In this document: positions 9,512-63,425 of the stretch, piece by piece
Layout of the letters: each line of letters begins with the position of its first letter
Position numbering within the stretch: the stretch's first letter is position 1
From: Hemileia vastatrix
Lineage: Eukaryota; Basidiomycota; Pucciniomycetes; Pucciniales; Zaghouaniaceae
Reading direction: 5' to 3'
Assembly (NCBI GenBank): GCA_030280995.1
Contig: JASXTE010000016.1
Coordinates: forward strand, 12,229,001 to 12,293,000
Length of the DNA: 64,000 bases
The notes under the pieces: generated by a model
Database searches by the model: none
Told to the model about the DNA's origin: nothing
What the model saw: only the letters and a program-made list of their open reading frames with translations
Translations under genes and position numbers: made by a program

Positions 9512-10604
9512 TGTAGAAAATCCTATAGTACTAGCTATAGGCGTTGACCAAGGGAGTTGGAGAAAAACCAGAGAGAGAATCCCCTGTCCCTTTAGAAAAA
9601 TAGAGTGAGATTTACTTGCTAAAGTAAGTTGGTTCCTGTTTTGCTAAAGCCCCTTTTTAAAACACTTGACTGCTTGATGAGCCAAGAAAGTAGTCCCCAG
9701 ATAGACTACCAGACCAAAGAACTGAAATGTAGAACAAAGTCCACACCAGAGACAGCAAAGATACTTGATGTAGGCTGCAAATCCACACCAGAGACAGCAA
9801 TAATACTTGCTATAGCTTGCAAGACTATAACAGAGAAAACAGTTGCCAAAGTTAAGTTAAATGAAGAACTCACTTGCAACAAACACAGCCAATTGTGACC
9901 AGAAAACAGTGAAAACTGAGTGAGGAACAATGAGATCACCTCCGAATGGTTGTATGATGATTAAGGTTGCCCCAAACTGTCTTATTCACTATGTACACAC
10001 AGACCACTAACCAAGAGCCCATGCACACCCACCAATCTGGCGCCTGTACCCACCAAATTGCATAAAAAACCCTCCTGGAGCGCTCCCCAACCTCCTAAAA
10101 CAGAGGTGGGCAGGCCGCCCGACGTCCAAGATGCTGCCTAAAGCGGCCCAGCCTCCCTGAAGCCAGAAAACCAATAAAAACCACTAATCTACTTAGAAAA
10201 ATTAGCTACAACTACTAAAACCTTTAAAACACGGAATTTCACTATAACAACATTGAGACATGAAATATAGAGAAAATTTAGCTCTATCCAATGGTACTAA
10301 GCACTTAACCCTAAGACTTAAGGTTAGCCCATAAAACACAAAAAACAAAATTAAACAGAAATCTTTTATAAATGAAAAATGAGGAAATGACCCCTTAAAA
10401 CTCAGAATATGAAAAATGTCTACAAGACATAAAATATAGAGAAAAACCAGGGCTATCCAATGATAGTACCCACCTACCCGCAGACCCAATATCCACAGGA
10501 TAAAACCAGAAAAATACCAAATTTCTTAACAGATGTCAATTAAGACATGCACAAACAGCGCCAAATCACACAACAAAGGCCCCTGCCAATGTTGGAAGAC
10601 CACA
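9512..10604 (-). repeat. El-D 3' LTR
   Basis: A 1093-bp LTR reading on the minus strand TGTGGTCTTCC...TTCTACA. Its partner is the split 5' LTR at 29376-29973 plus 43152-43650. It contains a near-palindrome CCTATAG-TACTAG-CTATAGG (9522-9541) and a 42-bp tandem duplication (9741-9824, units starting CCACACCAGAGACAGCA). Apparent open frames such as 9629-9898 are repeated in the partner LTR, but nothing marks them as coding. Confidence 0.9.
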
Positions 10605-11006: not shown

Positions 11007-11508
11007 CAGTTTTAAGTCTTGGGGGACCATCCTCATTTTATAGTCTTGGGGGACTCAAAAACCCTCAGTTTAAAGTCTTGGGGGACTCAAAAAACCTAAA
11101 TCATAAACCCAGAACCAGAGATCAACCACATTAAGACACAGAGAAAAAACTAACATTCTGGGGTAATTGTGAATAGAGCAGCCAGCCCATCAATTACCCC
11201 CAAACTTGCCTTTGCTAAACTCGGAGGCCCCCCCTGTGGATACCCTCCACCAATCTTTCAAAAACAACTCCAACAACAAAAACTTTTTCCTCAGTTTATA
11301 GTCTTGGGGGACTTACAACCCTCAGTTTAAAGTCTTGGGGGACTAACAACAGTATTCAGTTTAAAGTCTTGATGGACTAGCCTTGATAAAATCTTGAAAC
11401 CAGCCAGTTTAAAGTCTTGGAGGACTAACAGAAACCAGATTTCAGTTTAAAGTCTTGATGGACTGACTTGATACCATAGCTTTTTCAGTTTAGAGTCTTG
11501 ATGGACTA
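11007..11508 (+). repeat. CAGTTTA hairpin array, El-D
   Basis: About nine copies of a motif of roughly 22 bp, consensus CAGTTTAAAGTCTTGGKGGACT, at about 11007, 11034, 11063, 11294, 11323, 11357, 11405, 11444 and 11486. Each carries a short inverted repeat (AGTC, six bases, GACT). Two clusters flank the larger hairpin at 11160-11200. The array lies just upstream of the antisense gene at 11659, in its sense orientation. Further copies lie at 13974, 14232 and 14486. Confidence 0.85.
11160..11200 (+). repeat. Hairpin family 2, copy 1
   Basis: Perfect 10-bp inverted repeat GGGGTAATTG / CAATTACCCC around a 21-base loop containing ATAGAGCAGCCAGCCCAT. Other copies at 14067-14108, 14328-14368 and 34806-34846 keep the loop sequence and show paired stem changes. 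Confidence 0.8.
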
Positions 11509-11658
11509 ACGAAATTTTGCATAAAATGGACGCAGCCAATTTCATGCAGCACACCTCTACAGCCAACCTGCTGAACTTCCACCTTCACTTCATCATCTAC
11601 CCATCACTGACAAAAAACTCCTCCTATCCCTTTTCATCATCTTTTCTCACCACAGATC

Positions 11659-13210
11659 ATGGCTGGATCTCCTGATGTTAACCCTTCTACTCTCCCTTGC
11701 TTCACTGCTCCCAAGGACTACGCCTGCAAACAGTGCATCCACATGTGCAGACCTGGCACATTCACTCTTCCAAATCCTGAATCCAAATTCTACAACAGGG
11801 CTTGTGACTCTTGTTATTCCAAAAAGAAAAGATGTGACAGAGACACCAACTACCCTATTCCTGCGCCTTCTCCTTCTCACAAATACATCTCCAGATCCCC
11901 TACCAGATCCCCAGAGCTTGGTCCTTCCTCTTCCTCTCTATCTTCTGCTCCTTCCAGAAGATCCAGAAGCTCAGCTTCCCGCACTCTTCCCAAAAGACCA
12001 GCCTTAGCCTCACTAGAAACTGATTTTATCTCCGCCAAAAAAGCTCCAAAAGCTTCAAAATCAACTCCCAGGCTTCTAGACTGTGTCCAGGCGGCCCGCC
12101 CGCCTCACCAAACAGTGAAAATCAGGGCCAAAACCTCCAAAAACGGCCAGAAAATAGCCAAATTCATCCAGACAACAACAACAACTCAACCCAACTACCT
12201 CCTACTGCTTCCAGAGCAATGCAATCCACCCTTCCAAAGTCCAAAAGCACCAAAATTTACCAGATTTCTAAGAGAACTTCCAGAGAACCCCAAGAAGAAA
12301 CCAGAACACCACACACTGCTCCACAACAACAACTTCGTCCCCAACTAAGACAAAGAAAATACACCTCTCCTCTGTCAGCCAACTACTCTTCTGACAGTTC
12401 CATCTCTTCAAATTCTCCATCCAGAAGAGAGCAGTCTGCTTCCAAATCCCCCTCTCCTGCTCCATCCTTTAACAACCCTGGTACTCTATCACCAGCACCT
12501 CCTCCAGCTGAATCCAACAAAAATAACAACCACAACAACAACCACAATCTCGCTGCTCCAACTAGACCCCAGGAGCCTCAGCATCCCAGTTCACCTTCTC
12601 AGGATCCTTCAGAGGAAGACCATGAGAATCCATATCTTTCCCTAGTTGATCCACCCACTATGACCATTACAAAATTGTCAGAGATCCAAATCCCAGCTGC
12701 TTACAGATTTGATGAGCTTCCAATCTGTAAGTACCAAATTAATTATTACATTTCTTCAACAAAAATAATTACTGATCCAATTCTTCTTTTCTAGTTGGCA
12801 CCCCTCCTCCTGAATCTATTATTGGAGTTGGCCAAACTCTTGAAACTTCTTTGACCCTGGATTATGGAGACATGAAGAAACACCTAAGCACCATGTGTTC
12901 CAACATGCTAAAAGCCTTTGCCCTCCATGGACCCTTGAATGACTTTAAAAAATCCCTGAGAAAGCGCCTACTGGATGACCACTGGAAAATGTCTAGGATC
13001 ATTAAACACACCCTCCAGCACTCCATTCCTGCCTCTTCTTCCTCCTCCTCTGAACTTCCCTCTAATCCAATCCCTGACCATTACAATCCCTATAATCTCT
13101 CCAGCAGGATGCACTTCAAAGAAAACAGTGCTTCCCACAATCCCAACAAAAAACAAAAACGTCATCACAATCCGGACCAGCCTCCAGAAGCTTCATCATC
13201 CAGACAATGA
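11659..13210 (+). pseudogene. Antisense accessory gene of El-D: six-Cys cluster protein, spliced, one frame break
   Basis: The gene lies on the strand opposite El-D gag-pol, between integrase and 3' LTR. From ATG 11659 the N-terminus has six cysteines (residues 23, 26, 30, 49, 52, 59); the second half, RACDSCYSKKKRCDR, resembles the first half of a fungal GAL4-type Zn2Cys6 finger. A long Ser/Pro/Asn-rich stretch follows. The frame that leads into the C-terminus is open only from 12024, so the reading must shift one frame at about 12030-12110, which may be an indel or an unrecognised intron. An intron at 12727-12794 joins in phase to exon 2 (12795-13210), which starts FGTPPPESII and holds a helical segment (about 12870-13020) and a basic KKQKRHH tail. 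Two related genes are in El-G. A nuclear or nucleic-acid-binding role is inference only. I cannot name a family. Confidence 0.7.
12727..12794 (+). other. Spliceosomal intron in El-D antisense gene
   Basis: A 68-base intron: donor GTAAGT, branch-like TTACTGATCC near 12768 and pyrimidine-rich acceptor TTCTTTTCTAG. Removing it restores one continuous frame across phase 1. Introns at the equivalent place occur in both El-G genes (31571-31654 and 33645-33739). Its strand confirms that the gene is read antisense to the retroelement RNA. Confidence 0.85.
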
Positions 13211-13927: not shown

Positions 13928-14066
13928 CACCACCAATATGAAAGAACCAAAGATAAAGAAGCCAGTCCCAAACCAGTTTAAAGTCATAGCGGACTTGAAA
14001 CCTGAATAATAAACAACAGAACTAGAATTAAACTAGGAAAAACAAAAGACTTGAGACAGACATTCT

Positions 14067-14108
14067 GGGGTAACTGTTCTACAGAGCAGCCAGCTCATCA
14101 GTTACCCC
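14067..14108 (+). repeat. Hairpin family 2, copy 2
   Basis: Stem GGGGTAACTG / CAGTTACCCC. Relative to copy 1 the T:A pair is now C:G, so pairing is kept by two substitutions. Confidence 0.8.
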
Positions 14109-14327
14109 CACACTTGCCAAAATAAAATCTAGAAGCCCCCCTGGGTACCTTCTAACAAAAACACAACGTCCAACACAAAAAAAACCAAAACCAATAAGAG
14201 TGAAGAGACCAGCACATGAAAACCAGAGGAAATTCCAGTTTAAAGTCATAGAGGACTAAAACCTGTGAAAAGTAACCAATACTAGGGTTCAACCAAATTA
14301 AGAGAAAGGGTTGGAAACAGACAATCT

Positions 14328-14368
14328 GGGGTAACTGTTGATAGAGCAGCCAGCCCATCAGTCACCCC
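14328..14368 (+). repeat. Hairpin family 2, copy 3
   Basis: Stem GGGGTAACTG / CAGTCACCCC with one mismatch; the loop keeps GATAGAGCAGCCAGCCCAT. It lies 220 bases from copy 2 within a duplicated stretch (13975-14175 and 14233-14430) that also repeats the CAGTTTA motif. Confidence 0.8.
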
Positions 14369-14506
14369 TACACTTGCCAAGATCAAATCTAGAAGCCCCA
14401 CCCATGGGTACCTTCTAACAAAAGTTTCCAACACAAAAGTTGCTCTGCAACACCACAGAATTCCAAAAAAAAAAAGAACGTTCCATAGTTTATCCTCATT
14501 GCGGAG

Positions 14507-15438
14507 TTAATCTTCTTCATGCCTAGTGCCCCTGGGATAAAACCTCTTCACTTGGTCTGCAGCCACCCTCTTTTTCAAGACTGCACCATCCAACTCTTCC
14601 AAAACAGAAGAACCTCCAGACGCCTGAGATCTGACTCTGTAAGGTCCATTCCATCTGTCAGCAAACATTTTGCCACACTGACTCTCCAAACTTCTATTAT
14701 ACACCAAAACCAAACAACCAGGTTTCAAGGGATTCCTGAGTCTATGAGCCAACTTCTTGTCCCAATATCTGACTGATTGATTCCTAATCTTCATCATTCT
14801 AGAGTATGCCTTCTCTTGAAATTCCTCTCTACATTCCAACTGTTGCATCCTGACACAGAGCAAATCTTCTGTTGAGTGCACGTCATCCCAATCAGTTCCA
14901 AGATAAGAGACAGCTTCCAAGTCCACTGGTAGAACGGCTTTTTGACCAAACATTAACTCATATAGAGAATAGCCAGTTGTCCTATTCACAGTGACCCTAT
15001 CAGCAAATAAAACCAAGGGTAAATAATGCCTCCACTTTTTGGAACTATCTCCGCACATCTTCACCAAAGCATTCTTGATAACTTGATGGCATCTTTCAAC
15101 CATGCCTTCAGCTTCAGGATAATACTGTGTAGCCACTATAACCCTAGAACCAACACTAGCCACAGCTTTTTTAAATTTGGCACCAAACTCTGGCCCATCA
15201 TCAACAGTGACCAACTTCATCAACCCATACCTATAAATCCACTCCTTCTTCAAAAACTCTGCCACATTCTTGGCAGTCAAATTAACCAGAGGCACTGCCT
15301 AAACCCAACCAGACAAATCATCCCTAGCAACAATCAAGTATTTATACCTGCCCTCTTTAATATGGAAAGTATCCAGACTGACCCTTCCAAAAACAGTTGA
15401 TTCACCAGTAGCACAGACCACCTCTTTAGGTTTCAAGT
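14507..15438 (-). pseudogene. El-D integrase, core and C-terminus (split by El-C)
   Basis: Minus-strand 3' end of pol. It resumes at the integrase core (GRVSLDTFHIKEGRYKYLIV) with the first Asp, then VTVDDGPEFG with the second and YPEAEGMVERCHQ with the Glu, so all three DDE residues are present. One stop near 15299-15301 interrupts it. The C-terminus ends QVKRFYPRGTRHEED without a chromodomain, unlike El-A, B, C and E. The first part of the domain is at 23612-24079, across the 8.2-kb El-C insertion. Confidence 0.9.
15434..15438. other. Target-site duplication of El-C, left copy
   Basis: CAAGT, identical to 23612-23616. A 5-bp duplication is typical of Ty3/Gypsy integration. Confidence 0.95.
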
Positions 15439-16497
15439 TGTCAGATGCAGGGATGAAACATCTGACAAACAAGAGATAAAGGGAAGAGTATGTATCAGAT
15501 GCAGGGAGGAAACATCTAACAAACAAGAGATAAAGGGAAGAGCATGGATATAAACAAACAGACAGTTAATAATAGAAAAGGATAGAAAAGAGAACAAAGG
15601 GAGAAAGAATGATATACATAAAAACACAGCAGATAATAGAATAGAGATAAGAAAGAAGAAAAGGATAGCTGTGTAAATACAAACAAGAAGAACAAACATA
15701 CAAAGAAACAAGAGCTATAACAATAATAAAAAGGAGATAAGGGACATATAGAGCAAGATAAAGGGAAAGATAGTACATATAGGGTTATGGGCAAATTAGA
15801 ATAAGGAAGAGAAAGTACAAAGGGAGAGAATATGTAAATAAAGATAAATAGAATACATGAAATAAAATATAAAGAGGTGATTTCCTCTGGAAATCACCAT
15901 CTATCTTACACACCACAATTTATATAAACCCTAGTTGAGTTACTACTATTGTAGTCCTTGAATAAATAACAGTCCACAATAATTATTATAGTTTCCCTGC
16001 TATATTGAGTGATATACTGCATAGCATATACTGTTTAATTATTATTCCCCTTATCAAATAATATTACAGACTATATTATCTGATATTGTATCCTAAATTA
16101 GTGAGCTCTATTACTTATAACAATCTTATTATATTCTATTCCTGATACCTCTTAAGAGTAGCTTAGAGAGTATTGCAGAAGCATAAGATAAAAGTAAAGT
16201 ATTGCATATTTAATAACTTACTGGTCCTAGTCATTTACTGGAGATAGTAGTATTGGTACCTGGTCTATATATCATATAGATACTGTGGGAATTACTATAA
16301 ATATATCTCCTCATTTCTATAAAGCTTAACTTGATCAAATTATAGTACTACATAACTAGTACCTGATCTATAGCATATAATCAAAGCTATAGATAAGTGG
16401 GAATTGATTAAATATTCTACTTACTTAACTAATCATCAGACCTCAGTGCTGCTGATAAGATTGAATTAACCTCTCTTACAGTGACTTAGGCCTGACA
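15439..16497 (+). repeat. El-C 5' LTR
   Basis: 1059 bp, TGTCAGATGC...GGCCTGACA, with inverted ends TGTCAG/CTGACA. The 3' LTR (22553-23611) has exactly the same length and I found no difference in the stretches compared by eye, implying a recent insertion. It contains TATA box TATATAAA at 15921-15928 and, just upstream, a 10-bp hairpin at 15876-15898. The minus-strand open frames within it are shared with the 3' copy and are not called genes. Confidence 0.97.
15876..15898. promoter_or_regulatory. LTR hairpin upstream of TATA box
   Basis: GGTGATTTCC, TCT, GGAAATCACC: a perfect 10-bp inverted repeat with a 3-base loop, 22 bases upstream of TATATAAA. Repeated at 22990-23012. It could be a dyad protein-binding site or part of transcript structure; the sequence does not decide. 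Confidence 0.65.
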
Positions 16498-16787
16498 GTT
16501 GGGGGTCTTTCCGTAAGTACTCAGGTACTCTCACTCACAAAAGAAAGAAGATATAAATAAAAAAAAAAATAATTAAATCGAAAAATAAACTAGAAAAATA
16601 AAAAATAATAAATATAAGAAACGAAAGAAATAATAGAAAGAAACAAACAACAAACGATAAACAATAAAATAAGAAGAAAGATATACGTAAAGACTACAGA
16701 CATATAAACAAAAACGCACGCACAGAATACAAACGAAGAAATAAGAAATATAAAGGAAGACAAATAATAGAATAAAAGGAAGTCAAT
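16498..16787 (+). other. El-C primer-binding site and leader
   Basis: One base after the LTR comes TTGGGGGTCTTTCCG (16499-16513), the expected primer-binding position with a TGG at 16500. El-F has TTGGGGGTCTTTTC at the same place, so the two share a primer. I cannot assign the tRNA. The remaining 270 bases are A-rich and hold no gene; ATG 16788 follows AAGTCAAT. Confidence 0.7.
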
Positions 16788-19700
16788 ATGGAAAAAGAAT
16801 ATAGAAAATCTAGAAGAATAAGAAACTTACCACCGGATAATCAAGAACCAATTCCATCAACGTCAAAACGACTAATAACAGAATATGGAGAATCAAAACC
16901 AACAACTAATGACGACCAATCATCAAAACAATCCAGTGAGTTTTTTGATAACGCTAACAAAATAATAGAGTCTTACAGTAGTAAAAATAAAGGGAAATCA
17001 ACAAGACTTACAAGAAGTGATCAACCGTATTCGCCAAAACATGAGAATATTAATACAAAGAGAAACCTACGAGATAGTAGACCAGAAGATGAGGACCGAG
17101 ATTCAACCGATGAAAGAGACGATAGAATATTTAGAAGACAATATCGAGGAAGTGGAAATAAATCATTGTCGCCTAGATATGAAAGTAGACCATATGGAGG
17201 ATCAGTTCATCATGATGAAAGAATCAATAAAATTACTCAACGAATTACTCCAACAATACAGGAACGATTTATGGAAACTGCAAGAAGAAAACGAAATAAA
17301 GAAGAGACAAATAGAACAACTTACGAGAGGCGAGGAATCGTGGATAATGAACATCCTACAATGGTCAGAAAAGAGAATTCAGTAAGTAATAATCCCTGGC
17401 AAGAAGAATACGAAGAAAAAAACTTACCTAATATAAAAACAGAAACAATATGGACAACAACGAGGGAACCAGTAGAAACCGAAGAGGAAACGGAGATGAA
17501 GGACTGGATGGATAGGGTGTATGATAACGTAGAAAGATTATTTTCAAGAGATATAAACATGGTAACAGATAAAATACACGAAAATAATGCGAATATTGCT
17601 ACTATTATGAGAGATGTATTACTACCAATAAACGAAACATGTAATAATATAAAAAATATAAGTGAAGAAAATAAAAAAGTAAACGAGAGTAATAATAAAG
17701 AAATAGAAAATAATACATTACTTCTTTTTGACAAAACAACGGAATTATTAGACGAATTAATAATAAATAATGAAAACACTCTAGACTCAATAAAAAAAAT
17801 GAAAAAAGATGAAAATACAGAAATAGTTAAAGATATTAAAAAGGAAATAGAAGAATGGCACAAAAACAAAATAAAACCAGAACTAGTAAAAATAGAGAAA
17901 ACAACACATGATATACACAATAGATTAAACAACATAGAAAATATAATTTCGAAAAAGGTAAATAAGGAAGATAAAGAAGAGATAAGAAGTCAAAAGGAAG
18001 AAGAAATTAAAGAAGAAGTAAAAAAAGAAGATATTAAAGAACAAGATATGAGTGATTCAGAAAAAATAAATCCAAAAGACTACCCAAAAATAGAAAATTT
18101 TCCAGTATTCTACGGAGAAGGCATATATAATCATATGGAGTTTATTAATAATATTGATGTATTAAAGAAAGACTTTAGTATGCCAGACATATATATAACA
18201 TCAAAATTAGGGACAATATTAAAAGGAGAAGCAAGAGACTGGTACTTGAAAACAAGACTTACGACTAAAGCAAGATCATGGGAAGAATGGAAACAAAAAC
18301 TAATTGAAAAATTTTCGACAAGAACATGGATAGTTAAAATGAGAAATCACATAAATAATAATAAATTAAATGTAGAAAAAGCCAAAAATCCAGGAAGATG
18401 GTTTATGAATCTAGCATATAAATTAAAAGCAATAGAAACAACATGGGATGAAGATGATATAATAGAGTATCTAACATTGAAATTACCTGGAAAAATACAG
18501 AATGATATGCAAGCAAGGTGGAGAAGAGGACAATCATTAGACACATTTTGTCACCAACTAGATGAATTATTCCAGAATGACAAATTATACAAATCACACC
18601 TTTTTTATGAACCATTATATAAGAATATTATTCAAAAGGAAGAAGAAAAGAAGAATGAGAATAAGAAAACACAAATCAATAATAACATACAATGCTATAT
18701 ATGTAACAAGAAAGGACACTATAGTAACCTATGTCCTAATAAGAAAATTCAAAACATACAAATAGAAGATATAGAATCAAGTGAAGAATCTGAAAACAAA
18801 AGCAATAGTGAAAAAGATGATGAATCAGAAAATGATAAAGAAGAATATACATTAGATATAGTAAGAGAAGAAGTAGAAATCAATTCAATAGAGAATATAG
18901 AAGAAGAAATAAATATAGAGCTATCAGAACATAAAATCATAGCAAGAAAATTAAATGAAGAAGTGAATTATCAAGATAGTATACCAGCAATAACACTTGG
19001 ATATATAAATGGATACTTAATGAAAATATGCATTGATTCTGGAGCAGCATGCTCCATAATAAGCAAGAAACTATTTGAAAAAATAAAACTAGAAGAAAAT
19101 GCAATAGAAGAAATAAAAAACAATTTGACACTAATGGGATTAGGGGGAAAATTATTAACAATAGGAGTAGGCAATATAAGAATAACATTTCCTCATCAAA
19201 AAAGTAACACCATTCTAGAAATAAAAATAATAATAGTAGAAGAAATGAGGAGTGAAAACACAATAATACTAGGCAGTGAAATTCTACACCAATATGGATT
19301 CAATATTAACTATATAGATAAGGAATTCACAATTGGAAAAGACATAAAGAAGAAATTTGAACTAATAAAAAGGAAACCAACTTTAAGAGTATATAACAAC
19401 AGAACAGAACAGGATGAATTTGAAAAAGAACTTTCAAATATTCAAATAAACCAAGAACTGGAATTAAAAGAAAAAAATGAAATATTAAAAACAATTAAGA
19501 AAAATAAAGAAGCATTTTCATATGGAAAGAAGAGAATAGGACAAATTAAAGGACATGAACTAAAAATAACATTAACCTGTGAAGAACCATACCCAGCAAC
19601 ACTACAGAGAAAAGCATATAATACAAGTCCAAGAAATAAAGAAGAAATTGAAAAACACATTAAAGAACTAGAAGAACTAGAGGTTATTAAAGAAGTAACA

Positions 19701-22517: not shown

Positions 22518-22540
22518 AATTTTTTTTTTATTATTTTTTT

Positions 22541-22552
22541 AGAAATAGGAAG
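22541..22552 (+). other. El-C polypurine tract
   Basis: AGAAATAGGAAG directly before the 3' LTR TGTCAG, preceded by a T-rich run (22521-22540). The T-rich run followed by a purine tract is shared with El-A, B, E and F. Confidence 0.8.
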
Positions 22553-23611
22553 TGTCAGATGCAGGGATGAAACATCTGACAAACAAGAGATAAAGGGAAG
22601 AGTATGTATCAGATGCAGGGAGGAAACATCTAACAAACAAGAGATAAAGGGAAGAGCATGGATATAAACAAACAGACAGTTAATAATAGAAAAGGATAGA
22701 AAAGAGAACAAAGGGAGAAAGAATGATATACATAAAAACACAGCAGATAATAGAATAGAGATAAGAAAGAAGAAAAGGATAGCTGTGTAAATACAAACAA
22801 GAAGAACAAACATACAAAGAAACAAGAGCTATAACAATAATAAAAAGGAGATAAGGGACATATAGAGCAAGATAAAGGGAAAGATAGTACATATAGGGTT
22901 ATGGGCAAATTAGAATAAGGAAGAGAAAGTACAAAGGGAGAGAATATGTAAATAAAGATAAATAGAATACATGAAATAAAATATAAAGAGGTGATTTCCT
23001 CTGGAAATCACCATCTATCTTACACACCACAATTTATATAAACCCTAGTTGAGTTACTACTATTGTAGTCCTTGAATAAATAACAGTCCACAATAATTAT
23101 TATAGTTTCCCTGCTATATTGAGTGATATACTGCATAGCATATACTGTTTAATTATTATTCCCCTTATCAAATAATATTACAGACTATATTATCTGATAT
23201 TGTATCCTAAATTAGTGAGCTCTATTACTTATAACAATCTTATTATATTCTATTCCTGATACCTCTTAAGAGTAGCTTAGAGAGTATTGCAGAAGCATAA
23301 GATAAAAGTAAAGTATTGCATATTTAATAACTTACTGGTCCTAGTCATTTACTGGAGATAGTAGTATTGGTACCTGGTCTATATATCATATAGATACTGT
23401 GGGAATTACTATAAATATATCTCCTCATTTCTATAAAGCTTAACTTGATCAAATTATAGTACTACATAACTAGTACCTGATCTATAGCATATAATCAAAG
23501 CTATAGATAAGTGGGAATTGATTAAATATTCTACTTACTTAACTAATCATCAGACCTCAGTGCTGCTGATAAGATTGAATTAACCTCTCTTACAGTGACT
23601 TAGGCCTGACA
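22553..23611 (+). repeat. El-C 3' LTR
   Basis: 1059 bp, same boundaries and length as 15439-16497, at a constant offset of 7114. It is followed by CAAGT (23612-23616), completing the target duplication. Confidence 0.97.
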
Positions 23612-24079: not shown

Positions 24080-24355
24080 GTCCTTCTCTTTCCACTGAAC
24101 CTTGTGAGAATCTAGTTCACTAACAAAAACACCCTTTCCAAATTTTGAGCTGTCCCAAACAACAACTCCATCTTAATCAACAAAAACATCCTGATCACCA
24201 GAATCAAGATCAGATCCAGCCAGTTTAGCCTCTTGGGGGAGGTCAGAACAATCTTCCAGTTTAGCCTCATGGGGGAGGAAAGAAAAATCCTCAGCACCCT
24301 TTGTGCTGGCTCTAATCACTGGAACATCTTTGTCAAACTCTTCAGAATCAGAATC
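24080..24355 (-). pseudogene. El-D RNase H to integrase spacer
   Basis: A poorly conserved acidic linker with two in-frame copies of the CAGTTTA hairpin motif (plus-strand 24219 and 24257), encoding LPQEAKLAG-like and LPHEAKL-like peptides. El-G has the same arrangement at 36761 and 36819. Stops near 24175 and 24356 break the frame. Confidence 0.7.
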
Positions 24356-25870: not shown

Positions 25871-26908
25871 CCTAGCCCTCTCTACAATTCTGGAGGATTC
25901 TTCACCAAAGGAGTACAGTACGGATCTCTTGACAAAGGAGGACTTTTCAAAGGCGGATTCAAATCCACAGGCATAGGCTCATTGACAGGCCTAATCTTCT
26001 GCGCTACCTTCTTATACTTTGCCGCTCCACCTTCAACTTGAGGGATCTTCAGGAAATCTTCACCACCAGACCTGGAACAAAAACCAAGGGTTTCCCCATT
26101 GCTCACATGTGTGTCCAAGGTAATGTTTTTGAAAGGTGTAGAAGAAACCCTAGCGGTGCACAATTGGGAGGACTTACTTTTACACCCCAATCTCACCACT
26201 CCAAAACATTTCCGCAATTCCACATCTTCATCCTCACTTCCAACTTCCAAATCTTCAAATCTTGATTCATCTTCTGAATCACATCTTCTAAAATTGTGCA
26301 GTTTATCCTCATGCTGGAGGTCCAAAAATCGATCTTGATGATCTTCTCTCTTAAAAATTTTCTGCAGTTTAACCTCATGTTGGAGGCCCAACAATAGATC
26401 TTGACAATATTCACAAAAATATTTTGCATCTTCTTTCTTCATTATCTTCAGATTTTTTTCTTGATTTTCATGAATTATCTTGAAATTTTTATCTTCTTTT
26501 CTTGAGTTTTCTTCTGTCCTACAAAAATAACCAGGGGTTTCCCCAATGCTCACAGGTGTGGCCCAGGTAATGTTTTTGAAAGGTGTAGAAGAAACCCTAG
26601 CGGTGCACAATTGGGAGGACTTACTTTTAGACCCCAATCTCACCACTACAAAACCTTTCCGCATATCTTTCAATAAAGATATATAACCAATTTTCTTCTT
26701 TGAACTTGAATTAAAAATAATTAAGAATCTTGAGAGAGAACAGAGACTTGATAAAAAACTTGATGAATAATTGCAGAGAAGAGAAACATTAAAAAGAGAA
26801 AGTTGAAAATCCACTTGGTATATCTCCAAGGGAGCTGACCTACTACAACCTGGGATTTCCTCATCTCGGGGAGAGGTTGTAGCACTAGGGTGATCATCCC
26901 TCATTACT
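25871..26908 (-). pseudogene. El-D protease to RT spacer with internal duplication
   Basis: Open from 26904 to 25882, in a different frame from both neighbours. It contains two copies of a 42-residue peptide (SSQLCTARVSSTPFKNIT core) from a DNA duplication of about 125 bp (26087-26212 and 26531-26656). Two CAGTTTA hairpin copies (26301 and 26357) encode LQHEDKL and LQHEVKL. The end LVKNPPEL is shared with El-G. No known domain. Confidence 0.75.
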
Positions 26909-29375: not shown

Positions 29376-29973
29376 TGTAGACAATCCTATAGTACTAGCT
29401 ATAGGCCTTGACCAAGGGAGTTGGAGAAAAACCAGAGAGAGAATCCCCTGTCCCTTTAGAAAAATAGAGTGAGATTTACTTGCTAAAGTAAGTTGGTTCC
29501 TGTTTTGCTAAAGCCCCTTTTTAACACACTTGACTGCTTGATGAGCCAAGAAAGTAGTCCCCAGATAGACTACCAGACCAAAGAACTGAAATGTAGAACA
29601 AAGTCCACACCAGAGACAGCAAAGATACTTGATGTAGGCTGCAAATCCACACCAGAGACAGCAATAATACTTGCTATAGCTTGCAAGACTATAACAGAGA
29701 AAACAGTTGCCAAAGTTAAGTTAAATGAAGAACTAACTTGCAACAAACACAGCCAATTGTGGCCAGAAAACAGTGAAAACTGAGTGAGGAACAAGGGTAT
29801 CACCTCCGAATGGTTGTATGATGATTAAGGTTGCCCCAAACTGTCTTATTCACTATGTACACACAGACCACTAACTAAGAGTCCATGCGCACCCACCAAT
29901 CTGGCGCCTGTACCCGCCAAATTGCATAAAAAACCCTCCTGGAGCGCTCCCCAACCTCTTAAAACAGAGGCGG
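29376..29973 (-). repeat. El-D 5' LTR, inner part
   Basis: 598 bp matching 9512-10108 of the 3' LTR, cut at 29973 by El-G. The outer part is at 43152-43650. Confidence 0.92.
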
Positions 29974-31074
29974 TATGGTAAGGTAAACTCTTACAGTCGC
30001 CTTGCTGTAAGCAGAATCCGGAGGAGATATGTGGATTTAGCTGAAAACCCTGTCCTTCCAACAAAAATAACAAAATGGGAATTCTAAATCACTAAGCTAA
30101 CCCGTCTACTTGGATCTGATTGTTAAAAAATAATGAAACTCCAAAATATTTATCGCTTATTGAGATTTAAATAAAAGTGGCTGTTGAGAAAAGAAATACT
30201 GATAACAACAATTAAGGTGTACCAGTGAAAGATCTGTAAAGATTGACTTTTATGTTTTTATAATAATTTGAGTTTTTATGAGACAGCAATAATCAAGTCC
30301 CAGTGGTGAAGACCTTTCTAAAGATACCCTGTATGAAGTGTGATTTAAATTGTTGAGTAGTATTTCTAAAATGTTATATATAAAATATAAAGTTATAAGG
30401 GTATTACAATTTATTTTAATTTGTTGAGTAATAAAAAATGAGACCGTGGTGGTTAATGATTAAGCTGTATGATGTCTCCCCCCCCCTCAATTTCGAGTTT
30501 GAGAGGCGCTTAAGTATTCCTAGTCATGTGCCTAAGTTTTACCCTCCAGAGCTCTCCCAGAGTCAATCCGGAGCCCGTACGGAGTCAAAGCGGAGTCCAT
30601 CCGGACTTCCGGACTCAATTAGAACCTTTAAATCTATAATAAAAAATCTAGAAAAATTAAACATGATAGAGCCACTTCCCCTTTACATTCCAAACTAATT
30701 TTCGTAGTCTGCGCAGCTCTAATTACCCCGTGAAAATTCATCAAAGTTAAGTAATTTCTAAAAACGTAAATATTTCTATAAATCTTTAAAATTCTTTTAA
30801 AAATATAAGAAAAATAGTAAAAATTCTGGAAAAATTTCCCAAGGCTCTTGAGTGACTTGACTTGATACTTATAAACTTTTCAGACCGTAAAAATAAGTTT
30901 TCTCCGTAAAACAAATTGATTTCGTGTAGGCATTTGCTTTTAACCAAATTTCTTTATATTTAAAACTCAAATAAATTTAATAAAACCCTTTTATAAAATA
31001 ATAACGCCAATCTTGCATGCTGTAATAAATCCATTTAGGTACTTAGGTGCCATACTAAACTTTAGGCTACCACA
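29974..31074 (-). repeat. El-G 3' LTR
   Basis: 1101 bp, minus strand TGTGGTAGCC...TTACCATA. It pairs with 42020-43151 and is homologous to the El-H LTR (60795-61941). It contains a short GGAGTCCGTAC-type tandem repeat at about 30557-30616 (about four units). Its sequence is unrelated to the El-D LTR although the internal regions are sisters. Confidence 0.9.
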
Positions 31075-32472: not shown

Positions 32473-32942
32473 CTAGTTTAGAGTCTTAGTGGACAGTGAT
32501 AAATTAAAAGATTGAATTGAGTCATCCAAACAAGATTGACATTCTAGTTTAAAGTCTTGGTGGACCAAACATATAATTGATTTCCAGTTTATGGTCTTGG
32601 TGGACCAAAGATTGTTTAGGTGCATAAATAACTTGATATATTCCTAAATAAGGCCTAGGCTTGACCAAAGATTGAATAAATTTGATAATCCAGTTTAATT
32701 TCATAGTGGACCAAACATTTGATCGACAAGTAATCCAGTATAAGGTCATAGTGGACCAATGAATGTTGAATTATCCTGCAGATATTAATTTTCCAGTTTA
32801 AAGTCATAGTGGACTAAACAATGAATGAACTACCAGTTTAAAGTCATGGTGGACCAAACATTTGATCGATAAGAAATCCAGTTTAAGGTCATGGTGGACC
32901 CAACAGCTTGATAACAGTCCAGTTTAAGGTCTTGGTGGACCT
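32473..32942 (+). repeat. CAGTTTA hairpin array, El-G
   Basis: Nine copies at about 32473, 32542, 32584, 32691, 32736, 32794, 32832, 32879 and 32920. Stems vary in step: AGTC/GACT, AGGTC/GACCT and GGTC/GACC, with loops TTGGTG, ATAGTG or ATGGTG. The array ends about 90 bases before antisense gene 2. Confidence 0.87.
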
Positions 32943-33034
32943 AACAACTTCTCTATCCTTGAACCCAGATTTTGCCACCAGCTTTCTTCATCCTAGTTTC
33001 AAGTTTTCTTCTTCAAAAAAAATCTCCTAACAAG

Positions 33035-34026
33035 ATGAAACCTTCTGACTTCATTGCTTCAGCTGATCAATCTTGAAAATACTGTGCTTTCACCCATAGG
33101 GAATGTATCTTCACTTTCAACTGGAAAAAGCACACTTATAACAGGGCCTGTTTATCCTGTTATGAGAAGAAAAGAAAATGTTCTGGCTTGAATTGTGGTT
33201 CTTTCCCCATTACTGCTACTAGCTTCACCTCCTTCTGCAAACCTCCTCCTTCTTCTTCACCTTCTACTCCACCCCCTATTCAATCAACCTCTAGAGATCC
33301 CATCCCTTTTTCTCCATCAGCCTATTTAAATCTTTCATCATCACCTAATCCTCTGGGTCCTTCTCTCCAATCTAGACTTGCTGCTACTCCCCCAAGAACT
33401 CTTGCTGCTCCCAGGGCCATTCTTCAACCTTCTAACAATTCTTCTCCTACTTCCAACATCTTGAAGCACAAAAGGTCCTATAATAGCCAGCAATCTTCAT
33501 CTTCTCTTGTTTCATCCAAAAAGCCCAGAACATCTACTTCAAACACCAAATACAACACCAGTCCTCCTCATCTATCAAAAATAAAAAATCCCACTCCATT
33601 ACCAAGTAAGCCGTTTATCTATGATCATGATAGTGTTGACACAGGTTAGTTGTCTCTTTTATTTTCTTAATCTTCAGGTTTTAATTTGCTGATATTTTAA
33701 TTTGATAAGCGTCCACCAGTTCTCCAATTTCATATTCAGCTTATGAACTACCAGAACCTTATCCAAGCTTCCCTAGAGTTCCGATTCACCTAGTGTCTGA
33801 AAAGCTCTTTGCTAATTTTAATAACCTTATCGCTTATTTCCAACAAAACCCGCCCTCTGATAGATCAGAATCTTGGATGAGAGAGCAACTGTTAAGAGAC
33901 CTTTTCAAAATAGCCAACTGGCTTCAACACTATCGTGACCGTGAAATAAGATTCGAATCCCAGGAAATCGATCAAGGTCCTTCTAAATTTTCTAATTTTG
34001 ATTCTTCAAAAGATAACAACCCTTGA
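33035..34026 (+). pseudogene. Antisense accessory gene 2 of El-G: six-Cys cluster protein
   Basis: ATG 33035 (MKPSDFIASADQS), then TGA at 33074 exactly where the El-D gene has its first cluster Cys. Counting that position, the pattern is CX2CX6C, 14 residues, CX2CX6C, with YNRACLSCYEKKRKC matching YNRACDSCYSKKKRC of El-D. A Ser/Pro-rich linker (to 33644), an intron (33645-33739) and a C-terminal helical exon follow (YELPEPYPSF, then LIAYFQQNPPSDRSESWMRE and FKIANWLQHYRD), ending at 34026. It shares the YFQ..P signature with gene 1. The function is unknown; DNA binding is inference from the cluster. Confidence 0.72.
33645..33739 (+). other. Intron in El-G antisense gene 2
   Basis: 95 bases, donor GTTAGT, branch-like TTGCTGATAT near 33687, acceptor CATATTCAG. 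The exons join in frame (GAC ACA G/CT TAT GAA). Confidence 0.82.
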
Positions 34027-34588: not shown

Positions 34589-34805
34589 ACCTTTACAATA
34601 ATTCATAATATATATTAAAGAAAAGAAATCACAATCTAACATAAAAAAATCAAAAACAAAATAAAATAAAAAGAATCTTGAATCCGGCGTTGAGAGCGGT
34701 GTCTCTTGATTCGTTCCAGTTTATAGTCTTAGTGGACTTCCTATAATTAAAAGACAAAGCCAGGATTCAACTAGAAACAGGGAAAATTTTGAAAACAAAC
34801 ATTAT

Positions 34806-34846
34806 GGGGTAATTGTGTATAGAGCAGCCACCCCATCAATTACCCC
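34806..34846 (+). repeat. Hairpin family 2, El-G copy
   Basis: Stem GGGGTAATTG / CAATTACCCC, loop TGTATAGAGCAGCCACCCCAT. Preceded at about 34716 by a CAGTTTA-family copy, as in El-D. Confidence 0.8.
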
Positions 34847-35103
34847 CACACTTGCCAATATTAAATTAAGAAGGTTCCCCTGTGAACACTTCTTCCAATA
34901 AATTTTAAAAATTTTCCAACACTATCTTCAGCCATATTTTAAGAATTTCAAGTTTTTTGAAAATTTCAAAGAAGGTCTTCTTGAATTTCGTTAAGTTTCA
35001 TCATAGTTTTGTTGCCCATATGCAGTGTAACGACAGTAAAGTATTTTGATAAAAAGAAGATAGTTTATCCTCGTTGCGGAGGTTGATAAGATTTTTATAA
35101 ACA

Positions 35104-37254
35104 TCATATTTTATCCTCATTGCGGAGATCTACTTTGGCACTCCTGGTGCCTCTAGGATAGAACCGTTTCACTTGATCGGCCGCTACCCTCTTCTTAAAT
35201 ACTACTCCATCCAACTCTTCTAACTCATATGAACCGCCGGAAACTTGCTCCTTAATTTTATACGGTCCATTCCACCTATCTGCAAAAATCTTTCCCCATT
35301 GACTCTCTAGACTTCTATTATACACCAGGACCATATCACCTGGGTTCAAAGGTTTCCTTAATCAATGTGCCAACCGCTCATCCCAATATCTGACTGATTG
35401 ATTTCGGATCTTCATCATCCGCAAATATGCCTTTTCTAAATATTCTTCTTTCTTTTCTAGCTGCATCATTCTTGCACACAATAATTCTTCAGTAGTTTTG
35501 ACCGTGTCCCAGTCAACTCCAAGATATGATTCAGCTTCTAAATCAACCGGTAAAACTGCTTTCTGTCCAAAAACAAGTTCATAAGGTGAAAATCCGGCCG
35601 TCCTTTTGGCAGTGATTTGATCAGTAAATAAAACTAAAGGTAAATAGTGCCTCCACTTTTTGGCACTTGTCCCACGCATTTTAACTAAAGCATCCTTAAT
35701 AACTTGATGCCCTCTTTCAACCATGCCTTCAGCTTCAGGATAATATGGGGTTGCTACCCTAACCTTTGATCCAACTTTCAATATGGCCTCTTTAAACTCT
35801 GTCCCAAATTCAGGACCTCCATCTACCGTTACCAACTTCATCACCCCATACCTATATACCCAATTATTCAAAAAAAATTCTGCCACATTTTTAGCAGTTA
35901 AATTAATAAGAGGCGCTCCCTCTACCCAACCAGATAAATCATCTCTGGCCACAATTAAATATTTATACCGTCCCTCTTTTATATGAATGGCATCTAAACT
36001 AACTCTCCCAAAGAGCGTATATTCACCGGTCGCGCGTCCAGGTTCTTTTGGCCTTAAATAACTTTGTCTTTGACATTCTTTGCATGACTGAACCCACTGT
36101 TTAACAGCCATCTTCATGCCCGGCCACCAGAATCGATCAGAAATTCTTCTAAACGTTTCTCCAACGCCTCTATGCCTGAGATCTTCATGCAGTGATTTCA
36201 AAACTAATTCTTGCCCCTTCTGTTGAGTTATAACTACTTGAGGATTTGGATACCTCCTCCTCATTAAACATTGACCAGATAGGTAAAACGTAGTTGACTT
36301 CCTCTTGATAGCCACCCATTCATCATCTTCACAATCTTCTGGCCTCTCTAAACTCAACAAATATTTGACTAACAAAAAATAAAAGCCAGTCTGACCCCAG
36401 ACTTCATCTTGAAAATAGATTAATATAACATCAATAGGGACTTCTCTATCACCAATATCACCTGCACATGAATGAGCCAATAATCGTTGACCCCTAAATA
36501 AATCTTTAATCGAGCTATGTCTTTGTTTTTCTTCTGAACCTTTGGATCCTTCGTAAACCGTATTTGAAAATACCTCTTTCTCTTTATCCACCCTTTTATT
36601 TAAATTCTCTAATTCTCCAACATATACACCATTCCTTAATTTACTACTATCCCACACTACCAATCCATCTTCCTCTACATACACCACATCTTCTTCTACC
36701 TCCTTTCTACCAAATTTATCTACACCTTTTCCAACACCTTTTTTAACATAAAAACTATTTTCCAGTTTATCCTCTTGGTGGAGGTCATCATCACCATAAT
36801 CTAAACACAATAGTCCTGCCAGTTTAACCTCATGGGGGAGGTATGGAAAGTCTTCAGCTCCTTTAGTTCTGGCTTTGATAATAGGTATATCTTCATCGAA
36901 CTCTTCTGAGTCTGAATCTTCTTCAGTGGGTGGTCTCCTTGATAAACCATCTGGCATAGTAAAAGTTTTGCCAGGCTTATGAACTAAATCAAACGAAAAA
37001 TGTTGAATAAAAGCTACCCATCTCGTCATGAGTGCGTTCGGTAAACTTGGGGAATTAATCATCTGGATTAACGATTTCACATCCACTTGCAACTCAAAAC
37101 GTTGCCCCCACAAAATATGCTGAAGTTTCTTCAGTATTTTTGCCACACCACATAATTCCAATTTTGGTTGAGAATATCTTGATTCGACCTCAGTAAATAC
37201 TACAGATTCATACCTAACTGGCCTGATGTAACCAGCTTTATCCATCTGAGACAA
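35104..37254 (-). pseudogene. El-G RNase H end, spacer and integrase
   Basis: A minus-strand frame of 630 codons (37254-35362), then, after one stop, 35349-35104 in the same frame. The RNase H end (FTMPDGLSRRPPTEED) leads to an acidic spacer with LPHEVKLAG and LHQEDKLENS (CAGTTTA motif copies). The integrase HHCC follows (HEDLRHRGVGETFRRISDRF, SCKECQRQSYL), with the core carrying SLDAIHIKEG, VTVDGGPEFG and YPEAEGMVERGHQ, all catalytic residues present. The tail RGTRSAKVDLRNEDKI again overlaps the hairpin motif at 35106. No chromodomain. Confidence 0.9.
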
Positions 37255-38270: not shown

Positions 38271-39290
38271 TTAAGGCTCCCCATAGAAATGCTTCAACAC
38301 ACCCCTCTCCTCTTCTACAAAAGCAATGGCCTTCTCTCGCTTGACCATCACATCCAACAACAACTTCTTCTCTTCTCCAGACAACCAACCATCAGGTCCA
38401 AAATTAACAACACCCAGTCTCTCAAAAGTGATTCTTGACGTCTCAGAAAATTCAGGCGGATTCTTTACCAAGGGACTTTCATAAGGATCTCTTGATAACC
38501 TTGGTCTTCTCAAGGGTGGATTTAATTCAGCAGGTAGCGGTTCATTAATAGGTCGAACTTTATTTGCTACCTTCTTATATTTGGCTGCGTCCACATCTAA
38601 ATAAACTTGAGGTAAAACATTTATATTTGTATCACCATTACATATTTCATCAAATGAATCTTCTTCATCACCAGAATTTGAATAAGAAAAATTAGAAAAA
38701 TATTTTATTTCATTTTTAAATTTTACCCTTTTCTCCTTTCCCTCGTCTAATTTATAAATAGATTTTCCAACACCTTTGCTTCCATTATCCAAGAGTAAAT
38801 CACCCGTAAAGAAAGTTGGCAGTTTAACCTCTTGCTGGAGGACCGGAATTGAATTTTCACAAAAATTATTTTTTTGTGTTTTAATTATACCAAGATTTTT
38901 TATTGGATTTTGATGTGATTTTTGAAGTTTACCCTCTTGCTGGAGGTCCAAAATATAAGGAGATGATTTCAGTTTAACCTCTTGCTGGAGGTCATAAAAC
39001 ATACCCATCCAATTTTTATCCAACGTAATTTGCCCCATTTTGCCTTTTTCACCATTTTTAAATTTAATAGAAAAACAGGGTAAATCCAATAAACATATAG
39101 AAAAGTCCAAAACGTATTTGCACTCCAAAGTAATATTAACAGAAAATAATTGAGAATCCACTTGAATTATCTCCAAGTGAGCTGACCTATTGCAATCCGG
39201 GATCTCATCCTGAGGAGAGATTACAACATTAGAGTGATCAGCCCCTGCTACCCCAAAAAATGAGGGCATCCATCCCTTTCCAACAAACAT
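38271..39290 (-). pseudogene. El-G protease to RT spacer
   Basis: 339 codons with no known domain. Three CAGTTTA motif copies (plus-strand 38819, 38925 and 38970) appear as LQQEVKL, LQQEGKL and LQQEVKL. It ends with RLGVVNFGPDGWLSGEEKKLL leading into RT. Its start overlaps the protease frame by about 40 bases in another frame. Confidence 0.75.
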
Positions 39291-43151: not shown

Positions 43152-43650
43152 GCAGGCGGGCCGCCCGACGTCGGAGATGCCGCCTGAAGCGGCCTGGCCT
43201 CCCTGAAGCCAGAAAACCAATAAAAACCACTAATCTACTTAGAAAAATTAGCTACAACTACTAAAACCTTTAAAACACGGAATTTCACTATAACAACATT
43301 GTGACATGAAATATAGAGAAAATTTAGCTCTATCCAATGGTACTAAGCACTTAACCCTAAGACTTAAGGTTAGCCCATAAAACACAAAAAACAAAATTAA
43401 ACAGCAATCTTTTATAAATGAAAAATGAGGAAATGACCCCTTAAAACTCAGAATATGAAAAATGTCTACAAGACATAAAATATAGAGAAAAACCAGGGCT
43501 ATCCAATGATAGTACCCACCTACCCGCAGACCCAATATCCACAGGATAAAACCAGAAAAATACCAAATTTCTTAACAGATTTCAATTAAGACATGCACAA
43601 AAAGCGCCAAATCACACAACAAAGGCCCCTGCCAATGTTGGAAGACCACA
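43152..43650 (-). repeat. El-D 5' LTR, outer part
   Basis: 499 bp matching 10109-10604. With 29376-29973 it gives 1097 bp against 1093 for the 3' LTR. No clean El-G target duplication: the left flank is GGCGG and the right flank GCAGG. Confidence 0.92.
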
Positions 43651-62616: not shown

Positions 62617-63267
62617 CAGTTTAGAGTCTTAGGGGACAGTGATAAATTAAAAGATTGAATTGAGTTATCCAAACAAGATTGACATTCCAATTTAAAGTCT
62701 TGGTAGACCAAACATATAATCGATTGCCAGTTTATGGTCTTGGTGGACCAAAGATCGTTTAAGTGCATAAATATCTTGATATATTCCTAAGTAAGGCCTA
62801 GGCTTGACCAAAGATTGAATAAATTTGATAATCCAGTTTAATGTCATAGTGGACCAAACATTTGATCGACAAGTAATCCAGTATAAGGCCATAGTGGTCC
62901 AATGAATGTTGAATTATCCTGCAGATATTAATTTTCCAGTTTAAAGTCATAGTGGACTAAACAATGAATGAACTACCAGTTTAAAGTCATGGTGGACCAA
63001 ACATTTAATCGATAAGAAATCCAGTTTAAGGTCATGGGGGACCCAACAGCTTGATAACAGTCCAGTTTAAGGTCTTGGTGGACCTAAAATTTGATAACAC
63101 TCCAGTTTAAGGTCTTGGTGGACAGCTCCAAAATTCGTATAAAACCTTAAGGAAAGTCTTGAACAGTAGCCAGTTTAAAGTCTTGGAGGACTAACAGCTC
63201 CAAAATTCGTATAAAAAAAACTTAAAGAACGTCTTGAACACTAGCCAGTTTAAAGTCTTGGAGGACT
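62617..63267 (+). repeat. CAGTTTA hairpin array, El-H
   Basis: About 12 copies, mostly aligned one to one with El-G 32473-32942, plus extra copies at about 63063, 63102, 63170 and 63246. The last two lie in a tandem unit of about 75 bp containing CAGCTCCAAAATTCGTAT. Confidence 0.85.
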
Positions 63268-63389
63268 AACAGCTGTCTTGAAGTAAAATCCCATAGGTAT
63301 TGAGTTCCCCTAGACCCTGTTTCCTGTCTAAACTAAATGAATAAAACTAAAAAGAATGAAAACTAAAAAAATAAAACTGAGAAATATAA

Positions 63390-63425
63390 TAATTTTTATT
63401 TAATTAATTAATTTTTTTTATTTTA

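What the first reader, a model, noticed from the sequence alone, without database searches (positions are those of the whole stretch)
11659..13210. Intron-containing antisense gene carried by a Ty3/Gypsy element
Seen: on the strand opposite El-D gag-pol, between integrase and 3' LTR, a start codon leads to a six-Cys cluster, a Ser/Pro-rich linker and an in-phase GTAAGT-TAG intron into a helical C-terminal exon. The intron sits in plus-strand orientation, so the gene has its own transcript rather than being part of the genomic RNA. Homologues occur in El-G. Known: antisense ORFs have been noted in some plant Gypsy elements, and GAL4-type clusters are fungal DNA-binding modules. Inference: an element-borne regulator, perhaps of its own transcription or of host genes.
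Basis: partly seen in the sequence, partly recalled or inferred. Interest (0 to 1): 0.9.

Follow-up and report, generated by a model that had tools for sequence, protein, structure and literature searches.

The report
Retrotransposon antisense regulator and its sites
Many copies of a jumping element in a large fungal genome carry, on their back strand, a spliced gene for a probable DNA-binding protein, and the same elements are studded with one repeated 20-base sequence that this protein may use to recognise its own kind.

Summary
The gene is real, although the window copy is broken. At 11659-13210 (+), antisense to gag-pol and between integrase and 3' LTR, lie a Cys cluster, a Ser/Pro linker, a phase-1 intron (12727-12794) and a helical exon. 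This copy has a frame change in the linker, and one cluster Cys is Gly (1 of 38 copies). Other copies read through: 3 of 38 D-type (494-500 aa), 8 of 10 G-type (308/315 aa). G-type variants shared between copies are mostly synonymous (20 S, 9 N, 1 stop; neutral expectation 8.6/20.1/1.3; p=2e-5); private ones are neutral. So the protein was under selection while elements were active. The cluster is Zn2Cys6-like with its halves apparently swapped.

New: a 20-bp motif, CAGTTTANNNTCNTGGNGGA, with covarying inverted arms, occurs 43 times in the window (up to 2 mismatches). All 43 are in one orientation, only in D/G/H elements, none in LTRs; nine sit in gag-pol coding sequence. The genome holds 52,458 exact matches against 6 for a reversed control. 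Gene-less H-type elements keep the arrays (2,205 junctions counted; G gene 786).

Best reading: an element-encoded factor acting in trans on these sites, VANC-like. Binding is inferred.

The parts
11659..12726 (+). Antisense gene of El-D, exon 1: Zn2Cys6-like cluster (about 11725-11835) and Ser/Pro-rich linker; frame interrupted in the linker and C33 replaced by Gly in this copy
12727..12794 (+). Phase-1 intron, GTAAGT...CTAG
   Evidence: donor GT kept in 36 of 37 other copies, length 67-69
12795..13210 (+). Exon 2: two-helix region and basic tail, ends TGA
   Evidence: AF2 helices at residues 23-43 and 49-76 of the exon-2 piece, block pLDDT 66-83 there
11007..11509 (+). Array of 9 motif sites upstream of the antisense ATG (El-D)
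   Evidence: 6-11 sites upstream of the ATG in 40 of 40 D copies with a looser pattern
13974..14509 (+). Three motif sites between antisense gene and integrase (13974, 14236, 14486)
24221..24280 (+). Two motif sites in El-D pol (LPQEAKL / LPHEAKL on the minus strand); in this copy a 60-codon open stretch, 24176-24355, closed by stops on both sides
26299..26388 (+). Two motif sites in an open gag-pol frame upstream of RT (LQHEDKL / LQHEVKL on the minus strand)
9512..10604 (-). El-D 3' LTR; the other LTR is split: 29376-29973 and 43152-43650
14507..15298 (-). El-D integrase segment, opposite strand to the gene
   Evidence: assigned by tblastn match to El-G pol; no Pfam hit of its own
33035..33644 (+). 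El-G homologue, exon 1 (stop at Cys14 in this copy)
33645..33709 (+). El-G homologue, phase-1 intron
   Evidence: GT...AG in 10 of 10 copies, 65 or 66 nt
33710..34026 (+). El-G homologue, exon 2
32474..32943 (+). Array of 9 motif sites upstream of the El-G gene
34717..35084 (+). Motif sites downstream of the El-G gene (34717, 35061)
36763..36843 (+). Two motif sites inside the open El-G pol frame
38820..38993 (+). Three motif sites in an open El-G gag-pol frame upstream of RT
62617..63269 (+). El-H: array of 11 motif sites, antisense gene absent

Best explanation
The feature is an accessory gene of a Ty3/Gypsy lineage, encoded antisense to gag-pol, with an intron that only a plus-strand transcript could splice. 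Shown by sequence: architecture, intron, selection on the protein in the G family, and position. Inferred: its product is a nuclear protein. The Zn2Cys6-like cluster contacts DNA, the two C-terminal helices perhaps dimerise, and the protein recognises the 20-bp site (CAGTTTA, then inverted 4-bp arms 6 bp apart) that is arrayed upstream of the gene and spread through the element. Binding marks the element as self. It drives or autoregulates the antisense promoter and keeps the element transcribable, that is, an anti-silencing or activating factor acting in trans. Gene-less H-type elements keep the arrays and would borrow the factor.
For: Gene real and selected. 3 of 38 D copies and 8 of 10 G copies are uninterrupted across the intron. 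G shared variants are 20 S/9 N/1 stop against 8.6/20.1/1.3 expected, p=1.8e-5; private ones 8 S/29 N against 8.4/26.9. L048 against L049 gives dN/dS 0.13.

Cluster. C-x2-C-x6-C, 14 or 15 residues, C-x2-C-x6-C, kept in D and G. The second half matches Zn_clus positions 1-16 at 18.4 and 15.1 bits. The only PDB sequence hits are the Zn2Cys6 factors AlcR and Leu3, with halves crossed.

Site. 36 matches of the 21-mer against 0.02 by chance. 43 sites on plus, 0 on minus; 0 in El-D, El-G and El-H LTRs and 0 in El-A/B, C, E and F. 52,458 exact genome matches against 6 for the reversed pattern. Arms covary: 26 double changes against 8.9 in shuffles, covariation score 0.379 against 0.093, 0 of 500 shuffles. 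In nine coding sites 53 of 54 wobble bases are the same while residues vary.

Trans logic. Gene-less H junctions 2,205, G-gene matches 786.

Parallel. VANC21 motif arrays are same-orientation, dense and element-specific (PMC5735166 section 8).
Against: No binding, transcript or methylation data exist here. The site is absent from the LTRs, so direct control of gag-pol transcription is not obvious. D and G share the site although the window clusters are only 45% identical. Zn_clus never reaches its cut-off, and PDB E-values are 0.3-4.5. D-family selection is weak (p=0.011), and 24 of 38 sampled D copies carry a broken gene yet were amplified. Success of gene-less elements can also mean that the gene is dispensable. 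Two of the five covariation measures do not exceed shuffles, and 10 of 37 distinct sites fail at the outermost pair. The AF2 model of the cluster is poor (pLDDT 53).
Confidence: 0.45

Rival explanations
1. The sites are bound by a host factor, as Su(Hw) binds the 12 repeats of the Drosophila gypsy insulator, and the antisense protein does something else (for example nuclear import, or control at other sequences).
For: Arrays of zinc-finger sites in a gypsy element bound by a host protein are known (PMC2493044 passages). Gene-less H elements keep the arrays. The sites flank the gene rather than lying in the LTR.
Against: A host site might be expected in unrelated elements too, and none lies in the 34.8 kb of other elements in the window. 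Of the genome matches that one search lists (about 100 of 52,458) most fall in clusters spaced like D/G/H elements, judged by eye only.
Confidence: 0.25
2. The motif works in RNA: a small hairpin in the gag-pol genomic RNA (packaging, dimerisation or translation), and the Cys-rich protein is an RNA-binding accessory.
For: All 43 window sites have one orientation, arms covary and coding copies are fixed at wobble positions.
Against: Six folds (three sites, both strands) are no better than shuffles (z -1.15 to 0.60), and the D site tested does not fold into the hairpin as its minimum. The cluster looks like a DNA-binding type.
Confidence: 0.12
3. Only the antisense RNA matters (dsRNA or small RNA against gag-pol); the reading frame is incidental.
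For: Discussed as possible for plant antisense ORFs (PMC7264820 passages). Many D copies have broken frames.
Against: Codon-level selection in G, exon-1 lengths differing by 21 nt only while the intron varies by 1 nt, conserved Cys.
Confidence: 0.06
4. A captured host regulator that the element uses to alter host gene expression.
For: Zn2Cys6-type proteins are fungal regulators (recalled).
Against: No host-gene relative was found: protein searches found nothing, though whether that database holds such fungal proteins was not tested. Host genes near sites were not searched for.
Confidence: 0.07

Closest known systems
Antisense additional ORFs between pol and 3' LTR: Grande gene23, RIRE2, Retand TRP28 (PMC7264820 passages; PMC11963269 abstract, part 1 of 2 of section 11, section 12)
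   Same: Same place and orientation, present in most copies, proposed DNA-related regulator, tandem repeats often in the same pol-3'LTR region
   Different: Plant; TRP28 or other domains. No TRP28 here, but a Zn2Cys6-like cluster, a conserved phase-1 intron and a dispersed dyad site that also occupies gag-pol codons
brtn of Boty-like Gypsy elements in Botrytis (Zhao 2011, not read; seen only as cited in passages of PMC7264820, PMC8365987 and PMC4227169)
   Same: Fungal Ty3/Gypsy element with an additional antisense gene
   Different: Its sequence could not be compared here; ascomycete host; no site array is mentioned in the passages seen
VANC21/VANDAL21 anti-silencing system (PMC5735166 abstract, sections 8 and 9; PMC10398659 passages)
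   Same: Element-encoded protein; dense same-orientation motif arrays in the element, arranged as tandem repeats; related elements with variant motifs
   Different: DNA transposon of a plant; VANC has DUF1985/DUF287; sites mainly non-coding. Here a retrotransposon, another protein type, and sites in coding sequence too
GAL4-type Zn2Cys6 regulators (AlcR, Leu3)
   Same: Two C-x2-C-x6-C halves, one of them the basic ACxxCxxKKxxC type; the inverted arms with a 6-bp gap recall CGG-N6-CCG sites (recalled, from no call)
   Different: Halves in swapped order, below the Pfam cut-off, arms are not CGG/CCG, and an extra conserved CAGTTTA on one side
HTLV-1 HBZ (recalled; HTLV antisense genes are mentioned in PMC11963269, and the HTLV antisense promoter inside the 3' LTR in PMC7264820)
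   Same: Antisense gene near the 3' LTR coding for a regulator that acts on DNA (recalled)
   Different: Unrelated protein; in HTLV the antisense promoter lies in the LTR, here the arrays lie outside it

Membership tests
GAL4-type Zn2Cys6 cluster (PF00172) | Six Cys in two C-x2-C-x6-C halves | tested here: met
   C26, C33, C49, C52, C59 in 37-38 of 38 D copies, C23 in 35 of 38; the six G positions in 8-10 of 10. The window copy itself lacks C33
GAL4-type Zn2Cys6 cluster (PF00172) | Pfam gathering score of 21 bits | tested here: not met
   10.8, 8.3 and 8.0 bits for longer pieces; 18.4 and 15.1 for the second half alone; first halves alone no match
GAL4-type Zn2Cys6 cluster (PF00172) | Basic ACxxC...KxxC half comes first | tested here: not met
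   It comes second; crossed alignments to AlcR (E 0.32) and Leu3 (E 0.87), so weak
Antisense additional ORF between pol and 3' LTR | Antisense, between pol and 3' LTR | tested here: met
   LTR side 39 of 39, integrase side 36 of 39 other D copies; El-G in the window likewise
Antisense additional ORF between pol and 3' LTR | Present in many copies rather than a single capture | tested here: met
   1,089 D-type and 786 G-type matches to a cluster stretch at up to 3 mismatches
Retand TRP28 proteins | TRP28 domain (PF04195) | tested here: not met
   No match in Pfam at E up to 10 for the spliced L014 and L048 products
VANC-type anti-silencing | Element-confined, same-orientation motif arrays | tested here: met
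   for the window; genome-wide confinement was judged by eye on about 100 of 52,458 matches only
VANC-type anti-silencing | VANC domains (DUF1985/DUF287) | tested here: not met
   No match in Pfam at E up to 10
VANC-type anti-silencing | Protein binds the motif and removes silent marks | not testable with these tools
   Needs binding and methylation data

The most novel reading that the evidence does not exclude
A fungal LTR retrotransposon lineage evolved its own sequence-specific self-recognition system, equivalent to VANC/VANDAL but independent of it. An antisense-encoded, spliced protein with an order-swapped Zn2Cys6 cluster reads a 20-bp dyad written into non-coding DNA and into gag-pol codons at some 50,000 places. 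Gene-less elements exploit it in trans, and it may have helped to inflate the genome.
Probability: 0.33. Interest if true: 0.88.

Novelty: new variant of a known kind. Interest (0 to 1): 0.72.

Why it matters
Antisense genes near the 3' LTR have been known for years with no agreed function. Here one comes with a likely DNA-binding cluster, a selection signal and a candidate target site that is dense, oriented and covarying, so the function becomes directly testable. If the pairing holds, a retrotransposon carries a trans factor and cis code like those known from plant DNA transposons, and the numerous gene-less relatives show how one factor could serve many elements. [quoted passage not shown] another counter-silencing route would fill that gap.

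Tried and rejected
Protein homologues: three searches found nothing; whether that database holds this kind of fungal protein was not tested, so absence means little. Structure: the cluster model was too poor to use and the C-terminal exon model was middling (mean pLDDT 57.8, pTM 0.27), so no fold search was made. RNA hairpin: folds no better than shuffles. A peptide repeat in gag-pol as the cause of the motif: rejected, because residues vary while wobble bases stay. D-family selection alone would not carry the claim. D-G dN/dS for the cluster is 0.14, but synonymous sites are saturated, so I do not lean on it. A third gene-bearing family was not looked for beyond the closest-copy searches. Host species not identified: 747.6 Mb, 34% GC in the window, contigs of up to 71 Mb and Gypsy bursts would fit a rust fungus (PMC12210899, abstract and section 5, for rust genome sizes and Gypsy content), but this is inference only.

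Print searches: titles and starts of abstracts seen. No listing described this gene or motif. The library lacks most subscription papers.

Full report
WHERE IT LIES. The window is part of a 747.6 Mb genome. Blast of the window against itself gives El-D with LTRs at 9512-10604 and 29376-29973 + 43152-43650. The latter is split by El-G (LTRs 29974-31074 and 42020-43151, 95% identical). El-C (15439-23611, LTRs 100% identical over 1,059 bp) is nested in El-D. El-H begins at about 60792 and runs out of the window. El-D and El-G are read on the minus strand; the antisense genes are on plus, between integrase and 3' LTR.

THE GENE. Exon 1 11659-12726, intron 12727-12794, exon 2 12795-13210. All 40 scored genome matches to its first 442 bases are 97-100% identical, out of 2,970 first-look candidates, of which only 40 were scored. 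I fetched the other 39 and aligned 37 (L030 and L036, truncated, were dropped). They are the copies closest to the window's, not a random sample. The donor GT is intact in 36 of 37. The frame in the window copy breaks in the linker. This break is shared by 24 of 38 copies, the window's included, and absent from 14 of 38. Three of the 38 copies are uninterrupted for 494-500 aa. C33 is Gly only in the window copy (1 of 38).

THE SECOND FAMILY. El-G carries a gene at the same place with the same plan: cluster, Ser/Pro linker, phase-1 intron, helical exon 2. A protein search listed 150 scored copies of 4,992 first-look candidates; I fetched 9 of these 150, chosen by hand, and with the window copy have 10. 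Eight of 10 are uninterrupted (308 or 315 aa); two, the window's included, have a stop at Cys14. Exon 1 is 610 or 631 nt, while the intron is 65 or 66 nt. D and G proteins align at E = 1e-13 in a two-protein comparison without low-complexity filtering; the linker is low-complexity, so the cluster and the shared plan carry the case, exon 2 being only 23% identical.

SELECTION. In 10 G copies, variants seen in one copy only are 8 synonymous and 29 replacement (neutral expectation from the same base changes 8.4 and 26.9, with 1.7 stops). Variants shared by two or more copies are 20 synonymous, 9 replacement, 1 stop (expected 8.6, 20.1, 1.3; p = 1.8e-5). Old variants were filtered and new ones not, as expected for a protein needed while elements were active. 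The expectation allows for base-change type, not for neighbouring bases. In D, with duplicate L040 dropped, private variants are neutral (78 S, 224 N, 18 stops against 78.0, 228.4, 13.6) and shared ones show a weak synonymous excess (31 S, 55 N, 5 stops against 21.0, 65.8, 4.2; p = 0.011; leaving out CpG changes p = 0.009). L048 against L049 has 17.0 synonymous and 8.0 replacement differences, dN/dS 0.13.

THE CLUSTER. Both families share C-x2-C-x6-C, then 14 or 15 residues, then C-x2-C-x6-C. The second half is the basic one and matches the FIRST half of Pfam Zn_clus (18.4 and 15.1 bits as pieces, cut-off 21). The first halves alone match nothing in Pfam. The only PDB sequence hits are AlcR (D query, E 0.32) and Leu3 (G query, E 0.87 and 4.5), each aligning with halves crossed. 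These scores are weak one by one, but two queries point the same way. I therefore call it Zn2Cys6-like with swapped halves, not a member of PF00172. Exon 2 is predicted as two helices, residues 23-43 and 49-76, block pLDDT 66-83, overall pTM 0.27.

THE SITE. Tandem repeats upstream of both genes led to CAGTTTANNNTCNTGGNGGA. The 21-mer form has 36 matches at up to 3 mismatches against 0.02 in shuffles. With up to 2 mismatches there are 43 sites, all on plus: 9 upstream of the D gene, 3 between gene and integrase, 4 in D pol-gag; 9, 2 and 5 in G; 11 in H. There are none on minus, none in the LTRs, and none in the 34.8 kb of El-A/B, C, E and F. All 40 D copies have 6-11 sites between -740 and -170 of the ATG with a looser pattern. 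The genome holds 52,458 exact matches; the pattern read backwards has 6. Columns 9-12 and 19-22 form inverted arms around 6 bases: AGTC/GACT, GGTC/GACC, CCTC/GAGG. On 37 distinct sequences 92.6% of cells pair (73.6% in shuffles), 26 cells change on both sides (8.9), covariation score 0.379 (0.093), 0 of 500 shuffles reaching these three. Against this, the number of pairs with double changes (2) and of pair types (3) does not exceed shuffles, 10 of 37 fail at the outermost pair, and two of four pairs never vary, so independent events are few. RNA folds of three sites on each strand are no better than shuffles. I favour a DNA dyad.

SITES IN CODONS. Nine sites read NNC CTC CNN CAW GAG GNT AAA CTG on the minus strand. 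Seven lie in open gag-pol stretches of 340-639 codons; the two in El-D pol lie in a 60-codon stretch closed by stops in this copy, homologous to the open El-G pol. The bases at wobble positions of codons 1, 2, 5, 6, 7 and 8 are the same in 53 of 54 cases, while residues at codons 1, 3, 4 and 6 vary (D/F/G/Y/V, P/Q/H, Q/H, A/D/V/G). That is conservation of a nucleic-acid site inside coding sequence. The nine sites were picked by a motif, which favours sameness at the specified bases; the third base of codon 1 lies outside the 20-mer and is C in 9 of 9.

GENE-LESS RELATIVES. El-H and two other copies (L057, L058, about 1 kb each) lack the gene: 3 of 3 give no match to the G protein, with El-G as positive control. 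El-H has 11 sites in its array against 9 in El-G. Pattern counts at up to 3 mismatches: H junction 2,205, G gene 786, D gene 1,089; reversed controls 0 in each. The three patterns differ in length and drift, so the ratio is rough. Because D and G both have the gene, H most simply lost it.

MECHANISM. Shown: a conserved spliced-type antisense gene, selection in G, oriented sites that within the window lie only in these elements, gene-less relatives with sites. Inferred: the protein binds the sites. The arrays lie directly upstream of the gene, so autoregulation or activation of the antisense promoter is the simplest action; their spread through the element and presence in gene-less elements suggest a wider self-marking role. 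VANC21 binds same-orientation dense motifs in VANDAL21 (PMC5735166 sections 8 and 9) and VANC targets form tandem repeats (PMC10398659 passages). This is a likeness in workings, not kinship: VANC domains were not found. The rivals are a host binder, as for the 12 Su(Hw) repeats in gypsy (PMC2493044 passages), and an RNA role.

KNOWN KIND. [quoted passage not shown] New here are the protein type, the kept intron, the selection result and the dyad site with its coding copies. My print searches listed nothing that describes them.

Noticed in passing
62560-64000 (El-H), L057, L058: Gene-less relatives of El-G that keep the site array; the junction is found 2,205 times genome-wide at up to 3 mismatches.
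   Followed up: partly
15439-23611: El-C is nested in El-D, with LTRs 100% identical over 1,059 bp and a 1,913-codon open gag-pol frame, so a very recent insertion; it has no motif site.
   Followed up: no
D copies L009-L047: Private substitutions are rich in C>A and G>T (88) beside C>T and G>A (110) among 320, an unusual spectrum.
   Followed up: no
L039 and L040 (contig C2, about 59 kb apart): Two D copies share the same indels and stop pattern, suggesting a segmental duplication rather than two insertions.
   Followed up: no
D family, linker: A frame-breaking indel is shared by 24 of 38 sampled copies, so elements with a broken antisense gene were amplified, as expected if the product works in trans or has become dispensable in that subfamily.
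   Followed up: partly
L048, about positions 2150-2400: Further repeats resembling the coding-type site (AGTTTATCCTC...GGAG) in the stretch on the integrase side of a G copy, seen by eye.
   Followed up: no
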